A stretch of DNA of 64,000 bases from Stigmatella aurantiaca (GTDB lineage: Bacteria; Myxococcota; Myxococcia; Myxococcales; Myxococcaceae). How positions within the stretch are numbered: position 1 is the first letter of the stretch; the number at the start of each line of letters is the position of its first letter. A program made the position numbers and the translations under genes. A model generated the notes under the pieces. It saw nothing but the letters and a program-made list of their open reading frames with translations, was not told the origin of the DNA and did not search any database. This document shows, piece by piece, positions 943-4,327 of this stretch. The DNA is taken from the NCBI RefSeq assembly GCF_900109545.1, contig NZ_FOAP01000015.1, forward strand, positions 1 to 64,000, read 5' to 3'.

Positions 943-2191
943 CCCCTCATCTTGCGAGCAGGCAGGCAAGCGTTGAGTGGGCCGTCTGATGCAATAAGTG
1001 GGGTGCCTCGGGCACTACGTGGGCGGTGAGGTCATCGGCCATCAACGAGCAGCAGGTTCATACCTTCCTCCAGAGCTTGTTCGGGCAGGACATGCACGCC
1101 AAGCGAGTGCTGTCGCTGTCCTTGGCCACGTTGGGAGTCATCCACGCGGCCAGCCTCTCGGTGTACGCCATCGGCCAAGCCGTAGCGTTGGCGCGCGGCA
1201 CCCAAGGCAAGCACGGGGTGAAGCAGGTAGACCGGTTGCTGTCCAACGTGGGCATCCCCGTGTGGAAGCTGTTGGCGCTCTGGGTGCCGTACGTGCTGGG
1301 GCAACGCACCGAGGCGCTGGTGGCGCTGGACTGGACCGACTTCGAGCCCGACGACCAGACGACGCTGGTGGCCTCGCTGATAACAAAGCATGGAAGGCCT
1401 ACGCCCCTGGTGTGGATGACGGTGCAGAAGTCAGCCCTCAAAGGGCTGCGCAACGAAGTGGAGGATGCGGTGGTGCTCCGGTTGCGGGAACTCATCCCTG
1501 ACGAGGTGAAGGTGACGGTGCTGGCCGACCGTGGCTTCGCCGACCAGAAACTCTATGCGCTGCTGCAGCAGGTGGACTTTGAGTACGTCATTCGCTTCCG
1601 CCAGTGCATCACCGTCACGGATGCGCAGGGAGAGCGCCGCACGGCGGCAGACTGGGTGCCCAAGGCAGGCCGCCTGCGCAAACTGCCCAAGGCGCGGGTC
1701 ACCGCAGACCGGACGCAGGTAGGCCCGGTGGTGTGCGTGAAGAAGAAGGGCATGAAGGAGCCGTGGTGTCTGGCCACCAGCCTGGAGCAGGCCTCGGCCG
1801 CCGAAGTGGTGACACTCTACAGCCGCCGCTTCTCTATCGAAGAGGGGTTCCGAGACCTCAAGGACTTGAGGTTCGGCATGGGCTTGTCTTGGGTCCGTAT
1901 CGCCGAGCCGGAGCGCAGAGACAGACTGCTGCTGCTCAGTGCCTTGGCCTGTGCGCTGCTGACGCTGCTGGGCGCCGCAGGCGAAAGCCTGGGAATGGAG
2001 CGTTACCTCAAGGCCAACACCGTCAAGCGTCGCACCTATTCGCTCTTCCGCCAGGGCTGCATGTATTACCAGGCCATCCCCAACATGCCGGAGTACCGCC
2101 TGCGCCCTCTGGTAGAACGTTTCGCTCAGCTCGTCTGCGAGCAACCCGTCTTCCGCGAGTGCTTCGGACTTTTATGAGGGGATGCCTCAGG
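933..2191 (+). mobile_element. IS4-family insertion sequence
   Basis: The element is bounded by an 18-base inverted repeat with 17 matches: CCTGAGCCATCCCCTCAT at 933-950, and the complement of CCTGAGGCATCCCCTCAT at 2174-2191. It contains one transposase gene whose stop codon lies inside the right repeat. Total length, about 1.26 kb, fits the IS4 group. No matching target duplication is visible outside the repeats, so the insertion may be old or one flank rearranged. The left repeat also supplies the start region of the minus-strand gene at 438-942. Confidence 0.75.
1026..2177 (+). CDS. IS4-family DDE transposase
   Basis: This 383-residue protein is a DDE transposase with an RNase H-like fold. 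The first catalytic Asp is probably in LDWTDFEPDD and the second in VLADRGFAD. Near the C-terminus the run YSRRFSIEEGFRDLK matches the IS4 signature Y(2)R(3)E(6)K exactly and contains the catalytic Glu. The frame is intact, so the enzyme may still be active. The start is taken as GTG at 1026, because no upstream ATG is in frame. The TGA stop at 2175-2177 overlaps the right terminal repeat. It is the only gene carried by the element. Confidence 0.9.
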   Translation: MRSSAINEQQVHTFLQSLFGQDMHAKRVLSLSLATLGVIHAASLSVYAIGQAVALARGTQGKHGVKQVDRLLSNVGIPVWKLLALWVPYVLGQRTEALVALDWTDFEPDDQTTLVASLITKHGRPTPLVWMTVQKSALKGLRNEVEDAVVLRLRELIPDEVKVTVLADRGFADQKLYALLQQVDFEYVIRFRQCITVTDAQGERRTAADWVPKAGRLRKLPKARVTADRTQVGPVVCVKKKGMKEPWCLATSLEQASAAEVVTLYSRRFSIEEGFRDLKDLRFGMGLSWVRIAEPERRDRLLLLSALACALLTLLGAAGESLGMERYLKANTVKRRTYSLFRQGCMYYQAIPNMPEYRLRPLVERFAQLVCEQPVFRECFGLL

Positions 2192-2322
2192 CTCAAGCCA
2201 CCAGGGCCAAGAGTGCCAAGCCCCTGCCGCGCACCCCATGGGAGGGCCGCATGGGCCGGCGTGTACTCCAAGCGGCTGCGCGGCTTCTCCACCCGCTTGG
2301 CTCACGGCTCGGGCGGCCCCCA

Positions 2323-2886
2323 TTAGACTTCCTCGAACCTCGTGCCTGTGGCGCCCATGCGCTCCAAGGCGTCCTTGATCTCCCCGGAGACGAGCAGCGT
2401 GCCCGTCCACCCCTCGGGACGGAACACCTGGGCGCTTCCCACCTTCGCCTTGTCGATACGCAGTTCGTACATGATGGAATACCGCCGGATTCCGTGAAGC
2501 ACTCCCTCTTCGGGCGTCCAACGATCGAACCTGGAAGCCTTTTCGTCGATGCAGTCGATGACGCGCGTGGCAACGAGGATGAGGTACTGATCCGGTTGGC
2601 CCTCCACATCCACGGGGATCAGTTGCACATCATCCGGGGCCAGCTCTGCGAAGATGGACGCGACCCGGACATGGACCACCGGGAGGCCAACACCCGCTTC
2701 TGTGTAGTCCAGCGGCGTGCCCGCAGTCTCGATGGCGATTCTCAAGCGACCCTGGATGTGAACGGGTTCCCCGTACCTAAACTGCCGGTCGTCCACTTGC
2801 TGGCCGTGACTGTCCATCGGCGTGTCGAGGTGCCATCGGTGCGGGACGTACACATCATCGGCGAGCTTGAAAAAACGCTTGGGCAT
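2323..2886 (-). CDS. imm11-type immunity protein (DUF1629-like)
   Basis: This protein of 187 residues begins MPKRFFKLADDVYVPHRWHL and resembles the imm11 (DUF1629-like) immunity family that is abundant in myxobacteria. Such proteins sit beside polymorphic toxins and are thought to neutralise the matching C-terminal nuclease. Here the preceding gene, read in the same direction, is an AHH nuclease domain, exactly the expected pairing. ATG at 2886 is preferred over upstream starts because the family begins at MPKRFF and a GAGGGGG lies just before it. There is no signal peptide, so it should act in the cytoplasm. The gene is intact although its toxin is truncated. Confidence 0.75.
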   Translation of the reverse strand: MPKRFFKLADDVYVPHRWHLDTPMDSHGQQVDDRQFRYGEPVHIQGRLRIAIETAGTPLDYTEAGVGLPVVHVRVASIFAELAPDDVQLIPVDVEGQPDQYLILVATRVIDCIDEKASRFDRWTPEEGVLHGIRRYSIMYELRIDKAKVGSAQVFRPEGWTGTLLVSGEIKDALERMGATGTRFEEV

Positions 2887-2906
2887 GGGCACCCCCTCTA
2901 GCGCGG

Positions 2907-3371
2907 TTACTGCTGGGTGACGAGCCGGTTCAGTTCTGTTCCCGGGGTGGCGATTTGCTTGGCCAGTCTTCGGAGTTGGTCGGTCAGCGCCGCGCGGCAC
3001 TCCACGACGCTGCGACAGGTCGCCGTTGCATCGTCCAGCGCCTCATGGACGATCTCGTGATACCGCTTGGGGTGCGGCCCGTAGTGCCCCTGGAGAGGCA
3101 TCGTGTTCGCCGGGTCGTCCAGCGTCATCCCCGCTCTTGCGAAAATCTTCCGGAACCTGGGAGTCCACGGGCCGCCGCGCGTGGTGGACGTGTCGTTGCA
3201 GATGGTGGCGATGTGGTGCGTCTCGATGCAGGGGCTCGTGCCGCCACTGCCACTCGCCCCCATCGTCATCGCGGTGGCGGCCACCGTCACGGTCACCCCC
3301 TCCGCCGTCAGCGCGATCTCCTCCACCGCGCCCAACGCGGGCAGCGGGATTTTTGGCTGGCGGATGAAAGG
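2907..3371 (-). pseudogene. 5'-truncated AHH-domain nuclease toxin
   Basis: The C-terminal about 140 residues of an AHH-type (HNH-like) nuclease toxin are present. The hallmark THHIATICN is followed by PWTPRFRKIFARAGM and LQGHYGPHPKRYHEIVHEAL, which is typical of the family. Full-length myxobacterial homologues carry a long N-terminal part, often with a lipoprotein signal. Here the frame only reaches back to about 3404, with no good start codon (a TTG at 3335 is the best) and no signal peptide. The break falls near a hairpin at 3373-3408. The downstream imm11 gene starts about 20 bases after this stop, as in intact toxin-immunity pairs. The remaining domain would be active only if still expressed. 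Confidence 0.7.
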
Positions 3372-3372
3372 T

Positions 3373-3408
3373 GGTGACCCCTGCCATCAGGGGCAGACGC
3401 CTGTCACC
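3373..3408. repeat. Nested inverted repeat at the toxin truncation point
   Basis: Outer arms GGTGAC (3373-3378) and GTCACC (3403-3408) enclose inner arms CCCCTG (3378-3383) and CAGGGG (3388-3393). The toxin homology ends here. It could be a terminator, a REP-like repeat or a recombination scar; the sequence does not decide. Confidence 0.4.
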
Positions 3409-3592
3409 AGCCGCTCCCAGGGATGGCGTCCCTGCGTCGCCTCACCCGGGCAGCCTTGATTTCATAAAGCCTTGAAACCGGTGAGGATGGTCTGGGGCGC
3501 ACGGCACCGCGCCGTCCAGGCATGGAAGGTGCATCGGGGGTGAATGTCCTGACACACCGCCCTTCCACGCCGACTTTCCTCCGGAGTTTGCC

Positions 3593-4327
3593 ATGCGCGT
3601 CGCCCCCTCTCCTCAGCCCGTCGTGAACCGGTCCTCCGATACCCTTCCGATGACGAGGGAGGCCCTGCAGATCGAGCAGGTCAAGACCAAGACCCAGGAC
3701 CGGCTGAACAACCTCAGCCAGTCCCTGAAGAACGACGCTTGGGGCGGGCCCCCGTCGATGTTCCAGAACATGTCGGACAAGATCGTCAACGACGGTGCCC
3801 GCGAGATTCAGCAGATCCGCAATGGCGGCGGTGCCACCCTCGAAAACTTGAAGCCAACACGTTCCATGATTCCTCCGATGCCGACGGAGACCCTGCAGGT
3901 CGAGCAGGTCAAGACCAAGACCCAGGACCGGCTGAAGGACTTCGGTGAGTCCCTGAGGAACACCACCTGGGGCGGGCCCGCCTCGATGATTCAGAACATC
4001 GAGGACAAAATCATCAACGACGGTGCCCTCGAGATTCAGCAGCTCCGCGATGGCGGCCAGTCCTTCGAGAGTCTCCCGGAACTCCCGCAGGATCTCTCGC
4101 TGCCGGAAGCCACGCTTCCGATGACGCGGGAGGACCTGCAGGTCGAGCAGGTCAAGACCAAGACCCAGGACCGGCTGAAGGACTTCGGCGAGTCCCTGAG
4201 GAACAACGCCTGGGGCGGGCCCGTCTCGATGATCCAGAACATCGAGGACAAGATCATCAACGACGGTACCCGCGAGATTCAGCAGCTCCGCAACGGCGGC
4301 CCCAGCGGCCTCACGGGCCAGTTCTGA
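3593..4327 (+). CDS. Unknown protein of three 62-residue tandem repeats
   Basis: The 244-residue product is not recognised. It consists of three near-identical repeats at about residues 18-79, 94-155 and 175-236, joined by short Pro-rich linkers. Each repeat contains the same ordered blocks: LQVEQVKTKTQDRLKDFGES, then WGGP, SMIQNIEDKIINDG and EIQQLR-GG. Repeats 2 and 3 are the most alike and repeat 1 has diverged. The pattern predicts helices separated by a WGGP turn. No signal peptide, membrane segment or cysteine is seen, so it should be cytosolic. The ATG at 3593 follows a CGGAG. The 3' end overlaps the convergent response-regulator gene by 17 bases. Confidence 0.75.
   Translation: MRVAPSPQPVVNRSSDTLPMTREALQIEQVKTKTQDRLNNLSQSLKNDAWGGPPSMFQNMSDKIVNDGAREIQQIRNGGGATLENLKPTRSMIPPMPTETLQVEQVKTKTQDRLKDFGESLRNTTWGGPASMIQNIEDKIINDGALEIQQLRDGGQSFESLPELPQDLSLPEATLPMTREDLQVEQVKTKTQDRLKDFGESLRNNAWGGPVSMIQNIEDKIINDGTREIQQLRNGGPSGLTGQF

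What the first reader, a model, noticed from the sequence alone, without database searches (positions are those of the whole stretch)
3593..4327. Protein of three near-identical 62-residue repeats with no known family
The repeats are nearly identical at the protein level and highly similar at the DNA level, implying recent duplication or gene conversion. The block order is constant (VEQVKTKTQDRLKDF, WGGP, IQNIEDKI, EIQQLR) and the gene lies next to a toxin-immunity scar and a two-component operon. This looks like an undescribed repeat fold.
Basis: partly seen in the sequence, partly recalled or inferred. Interest (0 to 1): 0.65.

Follow-up and report, generated by a model that had tools for sequence, protein, structure and literature searches.

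The report
Repeat protein in hidden secretome regulon
An orphan three-repeat protein of a predatory myxobacterium turns out to sit behind a special promoter shared by dozens of mostly export-type proteins, which suggests it is one of the proteins this predator deploys outside the cell.

Summary
The gene and its three repeats are real, but "near-identical" overstates it: protein identity is 66-84%, DNA 85-92%. The family is an orphan: one orthologue (two repeats) in a same-genus genome and a 39-bp relic in another. A unit is predicted as an ordinary two-helix hairpin, not a new fold. The neighbours (AHH nuclease, Imm11, two-component genes) are not conserved in the relative.

What is conserved is the promoter. 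Upstream lies a tandem palindrome (CTGGTGAC-N4-GTCACCAG type) followed by a sigma54 -24/-12 site, the anatomy of an enhancer-binding-protein promoter. The pair recurs genome-wide: 49 of 56 operators have a strong sigma54 site against 3.1% of random positions, and operator-promoter distances are helically phased (11.2 bp). At E 1e-4 the operator is in 61 of 142 genomes of the class, all in six genera of one family. Its genes mostly encode proteins without Sec-like starts, many Pro/Ser-rich at the start, on varied bodies: lytic transglycosylases, thermolysin-type protease, C39 peptidase, pectate-lyase-like, many unknown. A few are Sec or lipoprotein hydrolases and lectins.

Best reading: a sigma54-controlled, probably predation-related secretome with this protein as a non-enzymatic member. 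Export by the needleless T3SS/Kil machinery is a testable guess, not shown.

The parts
3593..4327 (+). three-repeat protein gene, 244 aa, no Sec-like start
   Evidence: orthologue in G001; dN/dS 0.14-0.17 between orthologous units
3650..3829 (+). repeat unit 1 (60 codons)
3878..4057 (+). repeat unit 2 (60 codons); the unit missing in the orthologue alignment
4121..4300 (+). repeat unit 3 (60 codons)
3372..3389 (+). distal palindromic operator unit (TGGTGAC-N4-GTCACCA type), 12 of 14 consensus letters
   Evidence: the only operator pair scoring 21 or more in the 64-kb window
3392..3409 (+). proximal operator unit, 11 of 14 consensus letters, 20 bp from the distal one
   Evidence: conserved in G001
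3518..3533 (+). sigma54 -24/-12 site AGGCATGGAAGGTGCA; its -12 GC lies about 60 bp before the ATG
   Evidence: conserved in G001 as AGGCATGGGGGATGCA

Best explanation
The gene belongs to a sigma54 regulon controlled by one, so far unidentified, enhancer-binding protein (EBP). The EBP binds two adjacent palindromes, CTGGTGAC-N4-GTCACCAG, mostly 90-157 bp upstream of a sigma54 -24/-12 promoter, on the same DNA face, and opens it by looping. (Shown by sequence: site, spacing, phase, conservation. Inferred: binding and activation.) The regulon makes mainly proteins without Sec-like starts, many with Pro/Ser-rich N-terminal segments on varied bodies, a number of them hydrolases that only make sense outside the cytoplasm, plus a few Sec or lipoprotein hydrolases and lectins. 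(Shown: sequences and domains. Inferred: export by a non-Sec route during predation.) The repeat protein is a non-enzymatic member. A Pro/Ser-containing start precedes two or three helical hairpins with a WGGP turn, joined by Pro-containing linkers; repeat number changes by unit duplication. The likeliest role is a multivalent binding or helper protein delivered outside the cell. (Inferred.)
For: Operator and sigma54 site are conserved with the only orthologue although the genes beside it differ. A model from six sites finds the operator in 7 of 7 genus genomes. A sigma54 site scoring 13 or more follows 49 of 56 operators against 374 of 12000 random positions. Distances are periodic at 11.2 bp over 35 gene groups, not reached in 5000 controls. 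In other genera 17 of 26 distinct sites pass (duplicates removed). Starting from protein homology instead, 4 of 5 named Myxococcus loci have both elements. At E 1e-4 the operator is in 61 of 142 genomes, 6 of 47 genera, all one family. Products among 30 chosen: M4 protease, SLT, PG-binding plus C39, pectate-lyase-like, thaumatin-like, Asp f 4-like, alpha-lytic protease prodomain, ricin lectins; 18 without family. Signal- or TM-like starts 2 of 34 against 35 of 121; D[ASGTV]F motif 16 of 34 against 10 of 121. 100 simulated windows gave no operator-promoter pair.
Against: No EBP was identified; a motif scan of the fetched loci and the window gave no convincing EBP signature. Expression, sigma54 dependence and secretion are untested. 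The window protein lacks the D-x-F motif, and its N-terminal Pro/Ser/Thr content (0.28) is near the background mean (0.24). Of 24 own-genome operator sites examined, 5 had no sigma54 site of 13 or more; in other genera 9 of 26 had none, four of them strong operator matches. One promoter pair (L082/L104) has no convincing gene. No operator was found around the two SctV loci, and SctV presence does not track operator presence. One regulon gene (MshEN domain) looks intracellular.
Confidence: 0.66

Rival explanations
1. The regulon is developmental: a sigma54 EBP turns on spore-coat, matrix or peptidoglycan-remodelling proteins during fruiting, and the repeat protein is a coat or matrix component.
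For: EBPs act in myxobacterial starvation and development (start of the abstract of PMC9765219; passages of PMC7910581). Lytic transglycosylases could act in sporulation. The operator is confined to six genera of one family.
Against: Protease, pectate-lyase-like, thaumatin-like and ricin-lectin members fit feeding better; an M4 protease with propeptide normally acts outside the cell (general knowledge).
Confidence: 0.2
2. The repeat gene is a decaying orphan that has merely kept an old promoter; its product has no present role.
For: Found in 2 of 147 genomes of the class plus a short match in a third (DNA relic); the first search matched strongly in 2 of 59.
Against: dN/dS 0.14-0.17 between orthologous units and 0.08 between the two units of the orthologue; intact frames and promoter in both species.
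Confidence: 0.08
3. The gene is functionally linked to its neighbours, as a part of the AHH/Imm11 toxin-immunity locus or of the two-component operon.
For: Physical adjacency in the window.
Against: In the relative G001 the gene and promoter persist without these neighbours. The sigma54 site is only on the repeat-gene side: best score 13 there against 9-10 on the other.
Confidence: 0.03

Closest known systems
NmpR (NtrC-like EBP) regulon of Myxococcus xanthus (PMC11841059; 12 passages seen, abstract in part)
   Same: Two dyad operator sites upstream of a sigma54 promoter; spacing matters; several promoters in one regulon.
   Different: Operator GCGCA-N5-TGCGC, sites preferably 14-15 bp apart, oxygen-utilisation genes. 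Here the operator is GGTGAC-N4-GTCACC, units start about 20 bp apart, and the genes are export-type.
Nla28 EBP regulon of M. xanthus (PMC7910581; 12 passages seen)
   Same: Tandem repeat operator with sigma54 -24/-12 promoters.
   Different: Half site CT(C/G)CG(C/G)AG; targets named there are development and natural-product genes.
HrpRS-sigma54 control of type III secretion in plant-associated Pseudomonas (recalled, from no call)
   Same: A sigma54 EBP controls export-type proteins; harpin-like helpers with pectate-lyase or transglycosylase bodies exist there.
   Different: There sigma54 acts through the HrpL sigma factor; here the operator-promoter pair precedes each gene directly. Homology was not tested.
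Needleless T3SS* plus Kil (Tad) predation machinery of M. xanthus (PMC12075869; 12 of 29 passages seen)
   Same: The passages say prey lysis depends on the T3SS* and refer to potential effectors without naming any; regulon genes include wall-lytic enzymes without Sec-like starts.
   Different: No link between regulon and T3SS* is shown: no operator around the SctV loci and no co-occurrence signal.

Membership tests
sigma54/EBP-dependent promoter class | -24/-12 element with GG-N10-GC at the right spacing | tested here: met
   AGGCATGGAAGGTGCA at 3518-3533, conserved in the orthologue
sigma54/EBP-dependent promoter class | dyad operator upstream, helically phased with the promoter | tested here: met
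   tandem palindromes 3372-3409; the phase holds over 35 gene groups and the window's proximal distance, 126 bp, is one of the peaks
sigma54/EBP-dependent promoter class | requirement for RpoN and an EBP that binds the operator | not testable with these tools
   needs mutants and binding assays
T3SS substrates | no Sec signal at the N-terminus | tested here: met
   highest 12-residue hydropathy in the N-terminus of the window protein -0.17 (a simple hydropathy rule, no signal-peptide predictor)
T3SS substrates | shared N-terminal segment with T3SS-encoded candidates | tested here: inconclusive
   one T3SS-cluster protein start reaches a score that only 0.9% of 218 background starts reach, but on low-complexity sequence and hand-picked members
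T3SS substrates | linkage or co-occurrence with the T3SS | tested here: inconclusive
   SctV family in 19 of 19 genomes, with or without the operator; no operator around the two SctV loci
T3SS substrates | T3SS-dependent export | not testable with these tools
   needs secretion assays
WXG100/ESAT-6 hairpins | match to the family's sequence profile | tested here: not met
   not listed by Pfam at E up to 10; W-G-G in the turn and CFP-10/ESAT-6 at rank 39 of a fold list without significant matches are only a resemblance
Flu_C_NS2 (PF03555) | match over the whole domain | tested here: not met
   28.4 bits (cut-off 25), but the best stretch covers only profile positions 27-51 of 57, within helix 1 of unit 2
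known repeat family with a solved structure | sequence match to a solved chain | tested here: not met
   no PDB chain at E up to 10

The most novel reading that the evidence does not exclude
The regulon is the missing effector set of the myxobacterial needleless T3SS*/Kil predation machine: an EBP fires when prey is met, and dozens of modular proteins without Sec signals (N-terminal export segment plus exchangeable lytic or binding body), this repeat protein among them, are delivered to prey.
Probability: 0.27. Interest if true: 0.9.

Novelty: new member of a known kind. Interest (0 to 1): 0.7.

Why it matters
In the passages seen of a 2025 paper (PMC12075869) prey lysis depends on a needleless T3SS and its effectors are spoken of as potential, without names. 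A promoter signature that lists dozens of wall-lytic, proteolytic and unknown proteins without Sec-like starts gives a concrete candidate list and one regulator to look for. It also gives orphan genes such as this repeat protein a context that homology cannot give. The signature can be scanned in any genome of this family.

Tried and rejected
Function by homology: Pfam, PHROGs, NCBIfam and PDB sequence searches gave only chance-level or short-helix hits. Large collections gave none: genome contigs 57 pattern stretches with 0 confirmed (near relatives may be left out), viral contigs 128 with 0, phages and plasmids none. Of the weak protein hits, four loci were read (L009, L011, L017, L022); only L017 (the G006 fragment) looked real, the rest of the list was not inspected. 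A full-length structure was poor (pLDDT 44.1, two sequences), so only the single-unit model was searched; WXG100 and histidine-kinase hairpins in the lists are generic matches. I first suspected that the upstream element was a dispersed hairpin or mobile repeat; its RNA fold is unremarkable (z -1.25) and one exact single-site pattern found nothing in the own genome, whereas tandem site plus sigma54 explained it. T3SS co-occurrence as support failed.

The six sites of that model come from four gene families, because two are orthologue pairs.

Literature: (open-licence PubMed Central only) listed no paper whose title or abstract start describes this operator or regulon; one search found no paper at all. 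Subscription papers were not searchable.

Script limits: two sites were counted twice (19 of 28 as printed, 17 of 26 after removal). Start codons were called by a simple rule, which missed the Sec signal of the alpha-lytic-type protease group. The 30 proteins for Pfam were chosen by me; one (L055) has a sigma54 score of only 12. The N-terminal comparison used 20 hand-picked starts, and its background included a few regulon genes. One search drew its genomes evenly from a larger group and used stricter filters.

Full report
OBSERVATION. The ORF 3593-4327 (+) is intact and encodes 244 aa. Three 185-nt copies lie in register at 3646, 3874 and 4117, at 85% and 92% identity to the middle copy, spaced 228 and 243 nt. 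The 62-aa units share 41, 46 and 52 residues (1-2, 1-3, 2-3), so they are clearly repeats but not near-identical at the protein level. One genome in the same genus (G001) has an orthologue of 199 aa with two units, 60/62 identical to each other. Window unit 1 is closest to them at 59/62 and 58/62. In the alignment the window's extra unit is one clean block.

SELECTION. Window unit 1 against the orthologue's units gives dN/dS 0.14 and 0.17, and the orthologue's two units 0.08, so the protein is under constraint. Between units of the window gene dS is low (0.11-0.14) but changes are mostly replacements (unit 1 against 2: 5 silent, 22 replacement; against 3: 4 and 18), against 7 and 4 between unit 1 and the first orthologous unit (Fisher p 0.017 each). 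The extra copies therefore look recent and have diverged quickly in protein sequence. These counts are small and were not corrected for choice of pairs.

ORPHAN STATUS. Of 59 relatives searched with the whole protein, 17 have a match at E up to 1 but only 2 (own genome included) match strongly. Of 147 genomes of the class searched with a unit profile, 3 match at E 0.01 or better, the third only over 16 residues. That third case, in G006, is a 39-bp stretch at 92% DNA identity in an apparently intergenic place, probably a relic. Larger collections gave nothing. No family was recognised. The one Pfam hit over its cut-off, Influenza C NS2 at 28.4 bits, has its best stretch over 26 residues of a helix and is taken as chance. 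One unit, that of the orthologue with the window's three units in its alignment, is predicted as a two-helix hairpin (residues 3-28 and 35-59, mean pLDDT 88.7), a common arrangement: no Foldseek match better than E 0.66 and only generic hairpins by VIA-align. The three-unit model is unreliable (pLDDT 44).

NEIGHBOURS. The AHH nuclease, Imm11, response regulator, histidine kinase, PNPOx-type protein and a DDE transposase are real. Comparing the first 30 kb of the window with 19 kb around the orthologue by blastn, only the PNPOx-type gene and the repeat gene with its upstream region match. AHH/Imm11 and the two-component genes are absent from that stretch. DNA similarity starts at about window 3370, well before the ATG. 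That pointed to the promoter.

PROMOTER. At 3372-3409 lie two units of a palindrome, 20 bp apart, matching 12 and 11 of 14 letters of TGGTGAC-N4-GTCACCA. This is the only such pair scoring 21 or more in the 64-kb window. In 100 simulated windows of the same dinucleotide make-up such operators averaged 0.04 per window and none had a sigma54 site in range. A sigma54 -24/-12 site, AGGCATGGAAGGTGCA, follows at 3518-3533, about 60 bp before the ATG, and is conserved in G001.

REGULON. The first other copies of the operator were found by DNA similarity and a pattern, chosen without regard to sigma54; one further hit, inside a gene and with one unit only, was left out (L046). All six sites used, from four gene families, have a sigma54 site scoring 13 or 14 at a similar distance. 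In 60 fetched regions, 49 of 56 operator pairs had a sigma54 site scoring 13 or more at 85-152 bp on a side (both sides in 1), against 374 of 12000 random positions in the same DNA (Fisher p 6e-65). The seven misses are listed. Across 72 pairs in 35 protein groups the distance from the proximal unit to the -24 box clusters near 70, 81, 92, 104, 114, 126 and 137 bp, with one at 52. The best period is 11.2 bp (R 0.68 over groups), not reached in 5000 uniform controls scanned over the same periods. Phasing was not used in choosing the pairs. In the own genome all 24 distinct sites printed were examined, and 19 have a sigma54 site of 13 or more.

OUT-OF-SAMPLE TESTS. A second model from 33 sites was run on 12 genomes outside the genus: 8 of 12 had a match at E 0.02, with many strong matches in four (G013, G017, G028, G087), fewer in G020, and one or two weak ones in three. 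Of the 30 loci returned, the script counted 28 sites, 19 with a sigma54 site; after removing two sites counted twice, 17 of 26, against 303 of 5600 random positions. The nine misses are five weaker matches (E 2e-5 to 0.01) and four strong ones (L150, L156 with score 12, L162, L174). Starting instead from protein homology of one regulon family, 5 named Myxococcus loci were found. Four (M. sp. CA023, M. eversor, M. vastator, M. qinghaiensis) have both operator and sigma54 site before the gene. The fifth (M. xanthus AM003) matches without the first part of the protein and shows neither. In 142 genomes drawn from the class the operator occurs at E 1e-4 in 61, all in 6 of 47 genera of one family, 7 of 7 in the window's genus. 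Genera are unnamed in that tool; one same-genus genome has the length I recall for Stigmatella aurantiaca DW4/3-1, so the genus is probably Stigmatella (recalled, from no call).

WHAT THE REGULON MAKES. Thirty chosen products were scanned against Pfam: thermolysin-type M4 protease with propeptide, three SLT transglycosylases, peptidoglycan-binding plus C39 peptidase, pectate-lyase-like helix, thaumatin-like, Asp f 4-like, alpha-lytic protease prodomain with ricin lectin, ricin lectin plus thaumatin (lipoprotein-like start), a MshEN-domain protein, a weak esterase match under the cut-off, and 18 without any family. By script, signal- or membrane-like starts occur in 2 of 34 groups against 35 of 121 other proteins in the same regions (the script's start rule missed the Sec signal of the alpha-lytic-type group, so at least 3). 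Pro/Ser/Thr-rich starts occur in 17 of 34 against 21 of 121, and the motif D[ASGTV]F at residues 25-120 in 16 of 34 against 10 of 121. Different bodies share similar starts such as MSISSLSR, MSISPLSR, MSLAPVSR and MAISPLSS. The window protein has no signal-like start, begins MRVAPSPQPVVNRSSDT, and of 20 hand-picked starts is closest to MRVTTPSPAVLARPTETQ, but it lacks the D-x-F motif.

EXPORT ROUTE. The own genome has two SctV genes. One lies in a T3SS cluster with FliM/FliN-type, FliP, FliR-type and FlhB-type proteins, a DUF1521 protein, TPR proteins and, near SctV, a protein starting VTRIQQPSPAVIKSSS with a later KDGFQ. This resembles the regulon's starts, but low-complexity starts can match by chance. 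Against a link: no operator in about 78 kb around the two SctV loci and SctV in 19 of 19 genomes whether or not they have the operator. So T3SS export is a hypothesis. M. xanthus needs its needleless T3SS* for prey lysis, and the passages I saw speak of potential effectors without naming any (PMC12075869, passages; PMC10849154, passages).

KNOWN REGULONS. NmpR binds GCGCA-N5-TGCGC (PMC11841059, passages) and Nla28 CT(C/G)CG(C/G)AG (PMC7910581, passages); neither is this operator. Paper searches listed none describing it by title or abstract start, within open-licence PubMed Central only.

CONCLUSION. The repeat protein is a genuine, lineage-restricted protein of ordinary predicted hairpins, and its meaning comes from its promoter. 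It belongs to a sigma54/EBP regulon of mostly signal-less, export-type proteins in one myxobacterial family, probably used in predation. Regulon membership is strongly supported by sequence; export, timing and the role of this protein are inferred.

Noticed in passing
G006:C11:281017-281055 (L024, L033): 39-bp stretch, 92% identical to the start of a repeat unit, in an apparently intergenic place; probably a relic of the family.
   Followed up: partly
window 1026-3335: DDE transposase, Imm11 and an AHH nuclease ORF of 142 aa that looks N-terminally cut: a toxin-immunity remnant absent beside the orthologue in G001.
   Followed up: partly
L082 and L104 (own genome C23, G001 C4): Well-scoring operator plus sigma54 site in two species without a convincing gene downstream; possibly a small RNA.
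   Followed up: no
L092, L106, L122, L132: A MshEN-domain protein gene is a conserved regulon member; in L122 and L132 it is divergent from a secreted, by eye phospholipase-like, gene.
   Followed up: partly
L144:9551-10687: DUF1521 protein inside the T3SS cluster; I recall DUF1521 from rhizobial type III effectors.
   Followed up: no
L057, L058, L065: Other regulon proteins with, by eye, internal helical repeats and starts like that of the window protein (MRVTTPSP, MKVTTPA, MRIANPA).
   Followed up: no
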